NCBI GenBank assembly: GCA_030062745.1
Contig: CP099849.1
Span: forward strand, 18,398,144 to 18,462,143
Direction: 5' to 3'
Origin: Capitulum mitella
Taxonomy: Eukaryota > Arthropoda > Thecostraca > Pollicipedomorpha > Pollicipedidae
DNA length: 64,000 nucleotides
Shown: positions 9,529 through 58,330 of the stretch, in pieces
Numbering within the stretch: position 1 is the stretch's first letter
Layout of the letters: each line of letters starts with the position of its first letter
Notes under the pieces: generated by a model
The model's input: only the letters and a program-made list of their open reading frames with translations
Database searches by the model: none
Told to the model about the DNA's origin: nothing
Made by a program: the position numbers and the translations under genes

Positions 9529-9680
9529 ATGGCGCCGCCCCCGCTACGGCGCAGCAGCGCCAGCCAGCTGCCGGCGCACGCCGTCACAGAGGACACGCCG
9601 CCCGACATGCTGGAGGGCCAGATGAACCTGAGCGTTCTGCTGCCGGACGGACGCCACTGCCGGATGAGCGTGGACCGCGG
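9529..9680 (+). CDS. cobl: cobl exon 1 (first recognised coding exon)
   Basis: Encodes residues 1-50 and ends phase 2 (CGC GG, then GTGCGT). After a short APPPLRRSS opening it carries MNLSVLLPDGRHCRMSV, matching the first beta-strands of the Cobl domain. The exon itself begins at 9510 after GTGTTTCAG. The reading frame stays open upstream of 9529, so an upstream coding exon cannot be excluded. Confidence 0.8.
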
Positions 9681-56200: not shown

Positions 56201-58330
56201 CCTTTTGGAACCCGTTGCCGCCTTGGCGTTGATCGCCTATCCACGGACGAATCCACACACATCTTGCTCAAGCCTGATACATAAAATACTCAGTTCCAAA
56301 CCCAAACTGATACAAACGATCGCTGAAATCCCAAGTCAGGAGCCTGTCGCGCTTATACAACAGGCAGTAACGTGGGCCTGGCGCGTACGGCCAGCGCGCA
56401 GCCCAGTGGGCGCGGCCGGAGGTGCGGGCGCGGCCCCCGCCATCCTCTGTCGGCCCGGCCGGCCAGGCGGGCTCCTCCCGCCTGAGGGCCGGCCGGCGCG
56501 CGGCGAATCAGAACAACGCAGCAGAGAAAACGGCCGGGCAGGGCCGGGCCGGGCGTATCCCGCGCTAGCCCCACAAACAGCTGTACGCACAAGACTGGCT
56601 GACGACTGACGAGACACAAGGCAGAAGACCACGGACGCCTGAGCACAGGAGGTTGTATGTCCTTATTCGCAAACAAACGAACAGAGAGGTGTACGGCGAG
56701 GACCGTTTCTGTGGGCCCGCACCCACTCCGTACCACCACTATCGGCGTATACGGAAATTCTTCTGGCGTGACCAAGAGTTTATGAGCGCGGTTTCGTGTG
56801 TTCCGTTCACGACATTGTGACACACAATACGTCGAATAAGGGAGCAATTCGACTTTATAATCCAAGAACCGAGACCATTGGAGACGTCTATAGACAGATG
56901 TCTGCAGATGCAGCTTCCAGCTGGTTGCACTAAACACATTTACTAATGGATCAAAATTACCAACGACACAACATACAAACAAACGAGTCCAAAAACTACA
57001 AGACGCACACACTTTTAAAGAAAACTTATAAAATGGTAACACCTGAGATATGAGCAACCAAAACAGGTAAAAACGCAATTAGAAATTCTTTTAGATCTGC
57101 TTTACAAACAAATCAACATACTGGCGGGATTTCAGAGGCAGCCCAATTCGATATAAACCACACTCAGTCACAAGTTGTCATCGAATCTGTCGCGGCAGCC
57201 GGGTTGCAAGCCGCCGACCGGTTTCATGGGCGTTGGAACGGGGGAGCCATGCCCACTTTTTGGGAAAATTAGCCTTGGCCCTATGGGGACACCGTCCCTG
57301 CCCCCTTCCCCTACCAAACTTTTCCGGATGCTCCTACGCCCCTGATCGGGTTCATGGAAGAATAATGACGTAAATATGCGCGAAATACGGCCGGCAGGCC
57401 AAGCGCATTATCCGAGAAGTGGTTTCTTATAAAGGATTTCACCCGGACTATAGATACTAAGATTACATTATCCGCTTACTGACAACGATGACGGCACAAA
57501 AATACGGTTTTGCATTAATAGCCGACTGGCACTCACCTTCCGAAAATGGCTTCATTAAGATTTAATGGGTACGCATTACATCGTGGTGGGCGATGAATAC
57601 GACACCCAACGACATTTGCTCCCAGCCTGAATAAACTTTTGGCCAAGCCTGCTTTGTTTATCCAGACTGTTTACATTAGCCCGACTAGCCTGCGGCTTAG
57701 CATACAAAGCCTGGGGACACCTCACTGTATAAAACAGTGACATGAAAAAGACGTGTTTACAAACAGAACGCACACACAAGGCGCCAGTCACTGGGTACAC
57801 AACAGGCCGCGGCCCGAGCTCGGACCTCACCGCCTAGTTCTGCCGGCCGCCCCGCCGACGCTATCGCCATGGACAAACATCCCACACACTCAGAGCGTCC
57901 CAGACCAGGTCCGGGCCTGCCTCCGTACAACGCGCGCTGATCCCAGGACCGGACCGATCAGAAGCACAGCCCCTCGGCGGCGCTCCGGCTCCGGCTCTGG
58001 CCCCGGCTCCGGCTCCGGCTCCGGCTCCGGCTCCGGCTCCGGCTCCGGCTCCGGCTCCGGCTCCGGCTCCGGCTCCGGCTCCGGCTCCGGCTCCGGCTCC
58101 GGCTCCGGCTCCGGCCCCGGCACCGGCCCCGGCCCGGCCGGCGCCCGAGACTCACCCAAGATCGGCGCGCTGCGGTCGTTGGTCTGCACCTTCTTCAGGC
58201 GCGCGCCCTTGTGGATGTCGTTGAGCAGCGCGGCCCTGTCGTTGCCGCCTCCCTTGGCGGCCGCCCTGCGCGGCGGGCCGGCGGCCGGCGGCGGCGGCGC
58301 CGAGGGCGGCGGCGGCGGCGGCGGTGGCAT
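41132..58330 (-). CDS. WIPF/Vrp1: WASP-interacting protein / verprolin (7 coding exons)
   Basis: Predicted 484-residue WIP-family protein, a cytoplasmic actin-monomer binder that chaperones WASP/N-WASP and feeds Arp2/3-driven actin assembly. Minus-strand exons, 5' to 3', are 58330-58156, 48237-48067, 47566-47307, 45364-44834, 44435-44315, 43178-43080 and 41229-41132. They sum to 1,455 nt with all phases compatible. Domains in order: poly-Pro start; WH2 at residues about 31-57 ([17 protein letters not shown], then NDRSAPIL as in human WIP); Gly-rich segment with [15 protein letters not shown]; a long Pro-rich region (profilin and SH3 ligands); WASP-binding block at residues 420-452 ([19 protein letters not shown], then KIYPSQN); and a basic-Pro tail [11 protein letters not shown]. 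Length is close to human WIPF1 (503). The gene is convergent with cobl. It could be named verprolin (Vrp1) if arthropod. Family identity is very secure. Confidence 0.93.
41230..43079 (-). other. WIP intron 6
   Basis: 1.85 kb, CpG-rich at 41,700-42,500, with an interrupted poly-G run near 41,752-41,772. No exon or RNA gene recognised. Confidence 0.6.
43080..43178 (-). CDS. WIPF/Vrp1: WIP exon 6 (WASP-binding block)
   Basis: Thirty-three residues: [18 protein letters not shown], then [14 protein letters not shown]. This matches the WIP segment that wraps the WASP EVH1/WH1 domain (human ESRFYFHPISDLPPPEPY...KSYPSK). Acceptor GTTTTTTCAG; donor AACC|GTGAGT; phase 1 both ends. The exon is too short to stand out as an open frame; it was found by its motif. 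Confidence 0.93.
43179..44314 (-). other. WIP intron 5
   Basis: 1.1 kb, AT-richer than its neighbours. Nothing recognised. Confidence 0.6.
44315..44435 (-). CDS. WIPF/Vrp1: WIP exon 5 (poly-Pro)
   Basis: Forty codons: Ala and twelve Pro, [20 protein letters not shown], then NANSDSS. Acceptor GTGTCCGCAG (phase 0); donor TCTTCTG|GTGAGG (phase 1), which joins exon 6 to make the Asp of DYERRF. Confidence 0.92.
44834..45364 (-). CDS. WIPF/Vrp1: WIP exon 4 (long Pro-rich exon)
   Basis: 177 codons: [20 protein letters not shown], repeated PPPPP blocks, a charged break near the middle ([19 protein letters not shown]), then further poly-Pro ending QVRQGGQ. Acceptor GGTCGGCAG; donor GGACAG|GTGAGA; phase 0 both ends. 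A second possible donor (CAG|GTGCGG) lies 18 nt earlier, also in frame. Confidence 0.9.
45365..47306 (-). other. WIP intron 3
   Basis: 1.9 kb with a degenerate GGGTCA-type tandem repeat (45,640-46,170) and a short AAACC run at 47,047-47,073. No gene seen. Confidence 0.6.
45640..46170. repeat. Degenerate GGGTCA-rich tandem repeat
   Basis: Dozens of imperfect short units of the form GC(G/C)GGGTCA(G/C) with variable spacing. Some units read AGGTCA, the nuclear-receptor half-site, but repeat decay alone explains them. Confidence 0.7.
47307..47566 (-). CDS. WIPF/Vrp1: WIP exon 3 (Pro/Ser-rich)
   Basis: Encodes [20 protein letters not shown], then [23 protein letters not shown] and [11 protein letters not shown]. 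Acceptor TTGGTTGCTCGCAG (phase 1); donor CCGCAG|GTGGGC (phase 0). The proline runs are candidate profilin and SH3 sites. Confidence 0.9.
48067..48237 (-). CDS. WIPF/Vrp1: WIP exon 2 (Gly-rich, GGLF motif)
   Basis: Encodes [15 protein letters not shown], then [18 protein letters not shown] and RGRQEI. Human WIP has GLGGLFQAGMPKLRST at the same place. Acceptor CTGGCCGCCAG; donor ATCG|GTGAGC; phase 1 both ends. Confidence 0.93.
51060..51205. repeat. 42-bp tandem repeat, about 3.5 copies
   Basis: Unit CGGACCCTGCGGAGGCCGGC... repeats at exact 42-bp spacing with few changes. Forty-two is a multiple of three, so it forms an apparent 14-residue peptide repeat on either strand without being coding. 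Confidence 0.88.
57990..58126. repeat. GGCTCC (GGAGCC) hexanucleotide array
   Basis: About 18 near-perfect hexamers plus variants, 30 bp inside WIP intron 1. On the transcribed strand it continues the exon-1 frame as Pro-Glu repeats. Confidence 0.92.
58156..58330 (-). CDS. WIPF/Vrp1: WIP exon 1 (start codon and WH2 motif)
   Basis: Fifty-eight codons: Met, eight Pro, then [17 protein letters not shown] and [10 protein letters not shown]. This reproduces the WIP WH2 domain (human RNALLSDISKGKKLKKT...NDRSAPIL). The initiator is the Met before the poly-Pro run, as in other WIPs. Donor ATCTTGG|GTGAGT, phase 1. Confidence 0.95.

What the first reader, a model, noticed from the sequence alone, without database searches (positions are those of the whole stretch)
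9529..58330. Convergent cobl and WIP: possible ancient linkage of two WH2 actin regulators
Stops are only about 4 kb apart. Human COBLL1 and WIPF1 are both on chromosome 2q, and COBL and WIPF3 both on 7p, near the HoxD and HoxA regions. An arthropod-like genome with the pair adjacent suggests that linkage predates the vertebrate genome duplications. Both products act on monomeric actin, so shared 3' sequence or co-regulation is worth testing.
Basis: partly seen in the sequence, partly recalled or inferred. Interest (0 to 1): 0.7.

Follow-up and report, generated by a model that had tools for sequence, protein, structure and literature searches.

The report
Neighbouring cobl and WIP actin genes
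Two ordinary actin-regulating genes sit tail to tail in a barnacle-like genome; some of their chromosome neighbours are the same as in humans, which hints at an old shared chromosome, but it is not the Hox chromosome and no joint function is visible.

Summary
A cordon-bleu family gene runs on the + strand from 9529 to 37084. A WIP/verprolin gene runs on the - strand from 58330 to 41132. Their stops are 4,047 bp apart, and each was found once in its genome. The genome (477 Mb, 16 contigs) fits a thoracican barnacle such as Capitulum mitella.

The Hox cluster is on contig C1, with a second Antp/Ubx pair on C10; cobl and WIP are on C11, where none of 38 homeodomain matches falls. The only Grb7/10/14-type BPS match is on C11, as are one of two EGFR copies and an HDAC4-type exon. 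In human, COBL flanks GRB10 with EGFR 3.7 Mb away (PMC2674303). So linkage of cobl, Grb and EGFR may be ancient, with WIP perhaps included. The wider test is weak: 3 of 11 placed Hox-paralogon markers have a copy on C11 (p 0.02-0.07, post hoc).

Tail-to-tail adjacency is probably local. Drosophila Vrp1 is on 2R (PMC2931478); the fly cobl homologue is X-linked (recalled). I found no convincing shared 3' element, and nearest poly(A) signals do not overlap. The invertebrate survey could not be run here.

The parts
9529..37084 (+). cordon-bleu (cobl/COBLL1) family gene, coding span first ATG to stop (gene model partial; upstream coding exon not excluded, the ubiquitin-like exon expected after 14198 not found)
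9529..9680 (+). cobl exon: ...EGQMNLSVLLPDGRHCRMSVDRG
   Evidence: reading frame and splice phases
11382..11509 (+). cobl ubiquitin-like exon: TPMMDLLIQVTTANKISPGGHVIQVISDRGHSYLSYKPSTPI
   Evidence: 38% identity over 50 aa to recalled human COBL, E 3e-5; splice sites
12946..13064 (+). cobl exon: GTLDTTALRIVPKN...AKIRIK
   Evidence: phase-compatible exon search
14072..14198 (+). cobl ubiquitin-like exon: VYLPRNQLSAMRVSPKTPLADVLDQICKDKNLDVSRYELRHP
   Evidence: spliced peptide hits Pfam RBD (43 bits) and Cobl (17.6 bits, below its 25 cut-off)
28400..29700 (+). cobl exons with KRAP-type motifs (KRRAPPPP, KKRAPPPP); a further SKKRAAPKPP near 26.4 kb; boundaries approximate
36890..37084 (+). cobl last exon, WH2-like DPREELMIAIREHGGVKAMRSV, stop TGA 37082-37084; exon start approximate
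   Evidence: weak match to a Spire WH2 construct (E 0.057); no Pfam match
37085..41131 (.). 4,047 bp between the two stop codons; nearest AATAAA/ATTAAA signals 38212 (+) and 39702 (-), so predicted 3' ends do not overlap; more distal signals (40038, 40293 on +; 39099 on -) would overlap if used
41132..58330 (-). WIP/verprolin gene, coding span ATG 58330 to stop 41134-41132
58156..58330 (-). WIP first coding exon with proline run and WH2 ([31 protein letters not shown]), donor GGTGAGT
   Evidence: Pfam WH2 3.6e-12, PDB 2a41 1.1e-5
43082..43190 (-). WIP WASP-binding exon ([30 protein letters not shown]); boundaries approximate
   Evidence: 15 of 30 aligned columns identical to recalled human WIP
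44830..45350 (-). WIP proline-rich exon, boundaries approximate
41132..41229 (-). WIP last exon ...[30 protein letters not shown], start approximate

Best explanation
This is an ordinary pair of cytoskeletal genes, one cordon-bleu family and one WIP/verprolin, each found once, convergent on contig C11 of what looks like a thoracican barnacle genome. Their being on one chromosome is probably inherited: cobl, a Grb7/10/14-family gene, EGFR and perhaps WIP and an HDAC4-type gene belonged to one ancestral bilaterian linkage unit, separate from the Hox unit, and in the vertebrate lineage that unit fused with the Hox-bearing one, giving the 2q/7p pattern in human. The close tail-to-tail arrangement is probably a barnacle-lineage (or at most arthropod) product of within-chromosome gene shuffling, with no special regulation of the two genes together. 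Shown: the genes, their orientation, their single occurrence, the C11 location of the markers, Hox on other contigs. Inferred: the species, the ancestral unit and its fusion history for these particular genes.
For: Both genes verified; a probe of both matched significantly only on C11. The only BPS match at E up to 1 in 477 Mb is on C11 at 2.27 Mb (E 2.8e-9), and the locus has PH-, BPS- and SH2-like exons matching a recalled GRB7 (best 61% over 36 aa, E 5.6e-9). One of two EGFR-like kinase exons is on C11 at 13.18 Mb (65% identity). An HDAC4-type exon at 72% over 99 aa is on C11 at 16.99 Mb. Human and mouse Grb10 are flanked by Cobl, with EGFR 3.7 and 4.9 Mb away; GRB7 is near ERBB2, GRB14 relatively close to ERBB4 (PMC2674303, passages). 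Both published neighbours of COBL that I placed (Grb, EGFR) have a copy on C11: chance about 0.007 allowing EGFR two copies, post hoc. Hox on C1 and C10 agrees with CLGB having been three units before vertebrates (PMC7269912).
Against: Of 14 Hox-paralogon markers tried (membership mostly recalled), 11 were placed and 3 have a copy on C11; the other 8 are on C1, C3, C8, C10 and C12 only. The chance of 3 or more is 0.023 of 11 with one copy each, 0.041 allowing for the two-copy markers, 0.070 over all 14 tried, and 0.15 if C6 also counts. EGFR has a copy on C6 whose bit score is slightly higher than the C11 copy's. Nav, which neighbours COBLL1 in human (recalled), is on C3. C11 is not poor in other genes: 7 of 40 SH2 matches (about four genes) and 3 of 53 RhoGAP matches lie on it, and so does a ZIC homologue. 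A PDB search with the BPS stretch found nothing. Drosophila Vrp1 is on 2R, the cobl homologue on X by recall. WIP itself has no marker-based support beyond the adjacency.
Confidence: 0.45

Rival explanations
1. Coincidence: cobl and WIP reached C11 by unrelated rearrangements; their human co-location on 2q and 7p reflects only the vertebrate fusion of three ancestral units, and Grb, EGFR and HDAC on C11 are chance.
For: Markers of the same paralogon are scattered over C1, C3, C8, C10, C11 and C12; the excess on C11 is weak and post hoc, p 0.02 to 0.15 by the way of counting. CLGB was three units. Fly genes unlinked (plus recall). The pair was chosen after the fact.
Against: The only BPS match and one of two EGFR copies fall on C11, and these are the published neighbours of COBL.
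Confidence: 0.43
2. The tight convergent pair itself is ancient and kept by selection, for example shared 3' regulation or antisense overlap of two monomeric-actin regulators.
For: 4,047 bp between stops, convergent, each found once although the lineage has a reported genome duplication.
Against: Nearest poly(A) signals leave a gap of about 1.5 kb between predicted 3' ends (distal signals could overlap). The only notable shared 3' stretch is a 34-nt CCG/CCA-rich stretch at 85% (E 7.6e-6 with the low-complexity filter off), a proline-codon repeat on the cobl side. No Rfam family at gathering threshold. In human the genes are megabases apart (recalled) and in Drosophila on different chromosomes (plus recall).
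Confidence: 0.05
3. An ancestral Hox-linked block containing cobl and WIP.
For: WIPF1, CHN1 and HOXD13 are listed together among the genes of a human 2q31 deletion (PMC11462729, passages). STAT, a Hox-paralogon marker by recall, does share C1 with Hox here.
Against: None of 38 homeodomain matches is on C11; nine Hox matches are on C1 and two on C10. Vertebrate CLGB arose by fusion of three units.
Confidence: 0.05

Closest known systems
Vertebrate GRB10-COBL-EGFR region (7p) and its paralogues GRB14-COBLL1-ERBB4 (2q), GRB7-ERBB2 (17q)
   Same: cobl, a Grb7-family gene and an EGFR copy share one chromosome, C11
   Different: Spread over about 16 Mb on C11 rather than about 4 Mb; WIP is next to cobl here but far from it in human (recalled); no Hox match on C11; a second EGFR copy on C6
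Bilaterian cordon-bleu 'ur-form' with one WH2 (PMC3849942; part 1 of 2 read, which reaches the reference list)
   Same: Ubiquitin-like N-terminus, KRAP-type motifs (motif recalled), a single short WH2-like C-terminus
   Different: Nothing notable; [quoted passage not shown]
Drosophila Vrp1/D-WIP (PMC2931478)
   Same: Same family: verprolin; WH2 and WASP-binding C-terminus
   Different: Located on 2R in the fly, away from the X-linked cobl homologue (X recalled)
Capitulum mitella genome with ancient duplication (PMC11331182, PMC8416341)
   Same: 16 chromosomes; 482.98 Mb against 477.04 Mb; longest 45.43 against 45.52 Mb; one full Hox cluster plus a second Antp/Ubx pair
   Different: Chromosome numbers differ (Chr3/Chr7 there, C1/C10 here), so the exact assembly and species are not established

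Membership tests
Cordon-bleu (COBL/COBLL1/ptr) | N-terminal cobl ubiquitin-like domain | tested here: inconclusive
   Spliced peptide from four exons: Pfam Cobl 17.6 bits against cut-off 25, E 0.0052 (the last part of the domain was not found in the gene model); Pfam RBD 43 bits. 38% over 50 aa to recalled human COBL, E 3e-5. Genome search with PF09469, exon by exon, found nothing.
Cordon-bleu (COBL/COBLL1/ptr) | KRAP motifs (recalled as a family trait) | tested here: met
   KRRAPPPP and KKRAPPPP in + strand frames at 28.4 and 29.0 kb, SKKRAAPKPP at 26.4 kb
Cordon-bleu (COBL/COBLL1/ptr) | C-terminal WH2 | tested here: inconclusive
   PREELMIAIREHGGVKAMRSV by eye; weak match to a Spire WH2 construct (E 0.057); Pfam none
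WIP/verprolin | N-terminal proline run plus WH2 | tested here: met
   Pfam WH2 3.6e-12; PDB 2a41, WIP, 1.1e-5
WIP/verprolin | C-terminal WASP-binding motif | tested here: met
   15 of 30 aligned columns identical to recalled human WIP, E 2.9e-4; no PDB sequence match and no Pfam match
Conserved GRB-COBL-EGFR(-WIPF) linkage | Members on one chromosome | tested here: met
   C11: 2.27, 13.18, 18.41 and 18.44-18.46 Mb; an EGFR-like copy also on C6
Conserved GRB-COBL-EGFR(-WIPF) linkage | Recurs in other invertebrates | not testable with these tools
   No other invertebrate genome held; Drosophila Vrp1 on 2R
Hox-linked block | Hox cluster on the same chromosome | tested here: not met
   Nine Hox matches on C1, two on C10; 0 of 38 homeodomain matches on C11

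The most novel reading that the evidence does not exclude
Contig C11 preserves a non-Hox ancestral bilaterian linkage unit holding cobl, WIP, the Grb7-family gene, EGFR and an HDAC4-type gene; the vertebrate association of these genes with Hox arose only when that unit fused with the Hox unit. The pairing of two WH2 actin regulators and of a receptor with its adaptor would then be more than 500 million years old.
Probability: 0.27. Interest if true: 0.5.

Novelty: new member of a known kind. Interest (0 to 1): 0.32.

Why it matters
It separates two claims that human maps merge: that COBL and WIPF are on Hox chromosomes, and that they were linked to Hox, or to each other, before vertebrates. 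The first does not imply the second, because the vertebrate Hox linkage group is a fusion. The barnacle contig gives a concrete, checkable gene set (cobl, WIP, Grb7 family, EGFR, HDAC4 family) for placing on ancestral linkage groups. For the biology of the two genes themselves nothing new follows.

Tried and rejected
Hox linkage: rejected for this genome. Shared 3' element: one 34-nt stretch at 85%, CCG/CCA-rich, a proline-codon repeat on the cobl side; judged low-complexity. Overlapping transcripts: nearest poly(A) signals do not overlap; distal ones could. RNA genes in the window: none by Rfam at gathering threshold or ARAGORN. Second copy of the pair: none found at a significant E-value. 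Chimaerin as the WIPF neighbour: the two C11 RhoGAP loci read, by eye, as an ARHGAP9/12/15/27-like and a RacGAP1-like gene (names recalled); chimaerin was never placed. GLI on C11: rejected; the C11 and C6 matches are ZIC-like and GLI is on C3. Cobl exon after 14198: not found (one search printed nothing; searches gave no convincing candidate). Flanking genes: one frame each of L054 and L057 gave no Pfam hit; the other frames and L055, L056, L058, L059 were only listed as open frames.

Marker bookkeeping: Hox-paralogon markers tried: EGFR, GLI, HDAC4, SP, CACNB, Nav, STAT, GRB, CHN, TNS, NFE2L, ATF2, KIF5, RAB5 (14; membership recalled, except that one search supports GRB, EGFR/ERBB and COBL). 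Not placed: CHN, NFE2L, ATF2. Placed 11: EGFR C11 and C6, HDAC4 C11 (a weaker, 54-55% HDAC on C6 taken as HDAC6-like), GRB C11, GLI C3, Nav C3, STAT C1, SP C10 and C12, CACNB C10 and C12, TNS C8, KIF5 C12, RAB5 C8. The chained searches scored only part of their first-look candidates (61 of 566, 84 of 218, 58 of 141), so further copies may be missed. Controls from other paralogons, 6 tried: MEF2 and BRD on C2 and C3; PBX best matches on C3 and C2, partial; RXR highest identity on C3 but best E-value on C1; FGFR best match on C3 at only 48%; EYA not placed. No control's best match is on C11, though two weaker kinase matches to the FGFR piece are. Other families: 7 of 40 SH2 and 3 of 53 RhoGAP matches on C11.

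Allowing for two-copy markers raised the p-value, so I lowered the best explanation from 0.50 to 0.45 and the novel case from 0.30 to 0.27, and raised coincidence from 0.38 to 0.43.
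Full report
What was checked. The window is C11:18,398,144-18,462,143 of a genome of 477,042,490 bases in 16 contigs. Size, contig number and longest contig (C1, 45.52 Mb) fit the published Capitulum mitella assembly (16 chromosomes, 482.98 Mb, longest 45.43 Mb; PMC8416341, passages). The Hox arrangement fits too: one full cluster plus a second Antp/Ubx pair, as in PMC11331182 (passages, section 18 read). The species is inferred, and chromosome numbers differ from that paper.

The cobl gene. Stop-to-stop frames and phase-aware exon searches give four ubiquitin-like exons: 9529-9680, 11382-11509, 12946-13064 and 14072-14198. The second aligns at 38% over 50 residues to a recalled human COBL. 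Spliced, they hit Pfam RBD (43 bits) and Cobl (17.6 bits, below the cut-off of 25), the end of the domain being missing from my model. KRAP-type motifs follow at 26.4-29.0 kb. The last exon, ending at 37084, carries a short WH2-like motif. A single divergent WH2 is what Schultz and Terhoeven describe for invertebrate cobl (PMC3849942, part 1 of 2 read).

The WIP gene. The first exon, 58330-58156, has a strong WH2 matching the crystallised WIP peptide. The stop-to-stop frame there runs on into an (EP)n repeat that lies beyond a clear splice donor, so the repeat is probably intronic. The WASP-binding exon is at about 43.1 kb and the stop at 41132. Between the stops lie 4,047 bp.

Copy number and 3' ends. 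A probe of both genes gave nine matches at E up to 10: six on C11, in this window, and three elsewhere with E above 0.4. The nearest poly(A) signals, at 38212 (+) and 39702 (-), leave the predicted transcripts non-overlapping; more distal signals exist. The only notable shared 3' stretch is a 34-nt CCG/CCA-rich one.

Hox. Of 38 homeodomain matches, nine Hox genes lie on C1 (6.18-7.04 Mb) and two on C10; none of the 38 is on C11. In the scallop-amphioxus ancestor the Hox-bearing group of vertebrates was three units (PMC7269912, passages). Human 2q and 7p co-location with Hox therefore cannot by itself show pre-vertebrate linkage to Hox or between COBL and WIPF.

Neighbours. Human GRB10 is flanked by DDC and COBL, with EGFR 3.7 Mb away; in mouse Grb10 is flanked by Ddc and Cobl with Egfr 4.9 Mb away (PMC2674303, passages). 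In the barnacle the only BPS-domain match is on C11 at 2.27 Mb, in a locus with further Grb7-type exons. EGFR-like kinase exons lie on C11 at 13.18 Mb (65% identity, 131 bits) and on C6 at 30.91 Mb (57%, 136 bits). An HDAC4-type exon lies at 16.99 Mb (72%). The other placed Hox-paralogon markers lie elsewhere, so 3 of 11 have a copy on C11. The chance of that is 0.023 with one copy each, 0.041 allowing for two-copy markers, 0.070 over all 14 tried, and 0.15 if C6 counts as well. These tests were chosen as I went and the paralogon list is mostly recalled; they are suggestive only. EGFR and ZIC each have copies on C11 and C6, so these two contigs may be duplicates of each other.

Other animals. 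Drosophila Vrp1 is on 2R (PMC2931478, passages and section 5). The fly cobl homologue 'proximal to raf' is X-linked by recall. WIPF1, CHN1 and HOXD13 are listed together among the genes of a 2q31 deletion (PMC11462729, passages). Two searches of the held papers, for COBLL1/WIPF1 with synteny or paralogon terms (15 of 178 listed) and for cordon-bleu with verprolin, synteny or adjacency (8 of 26 listed), showed no listed title or abstract start that reports this linkage; unlisted papers were not seen.

Verdict. Tight adjacency is most likely local.

Noticed in passing
G000 C1:6.18-7.04 Mb and C10:28.05-28.09 Mb (L006-L016): Hox homeodomains in order, which by eye read lab, pb, Dfd, Scr, ftz, Antp, Ubx, an abd-A-like piece of 50 residues, Abd-B; a second Antp/Ubx-like pair on C10. 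Matches the published barnacle arrangement with an incomplete abd-A.
   Followed up: partly
G000 C11:13.18 and C6:30.91 Mb (EGFR); C11:20.82 and C6:23.43 Mb (ZIC): Paired copies of EGFR and ZIC suggest C11 and C6 may be duplicates from the barnacle whole-genome duplication, with cobl and WIP found only on C11.
   Followed up: partly
G000 C10:27,940,764 and C1:16,913,054 (L002, L003): A paired WH2 exon (KLMNDIRQGVKLKKVKCNDRSRP-like) of an unidentified protein; the C10 copy lies about 115 kb from the second Antp/Ubx pair.
   Followed up: no
window 3845-4513, 22000-22400, 25190-25600: GC-rich repeats that read RAEPSRAEP or PARLGSARPG in open frames; they look like simple repeats, not coding sequence.
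   Followed up: no
window 57890-58155: An (EP)n-like repeat just beyond the first WIP exon, which extends the open frame and gave a low-complexity Pfam PARP match below its cut-off.
   Followed up: partly
L057 about 5.7-7.4 kb (C11 about 18.468-18.470 Mb): Open frames on the + strand that look by eye like SEC62, next gene beyond the WIP 5' end; the one frame scanned gave no Pfam hit.
   Followed up: partly
G000 C3:4.5236-4.5244 Mb and C2:21.0447-21.0455 Mb: Three partial PBX/exd-like homeodomain matches within about 0.8 kb at each of two places; could be alternative exons.
   Followed up: no
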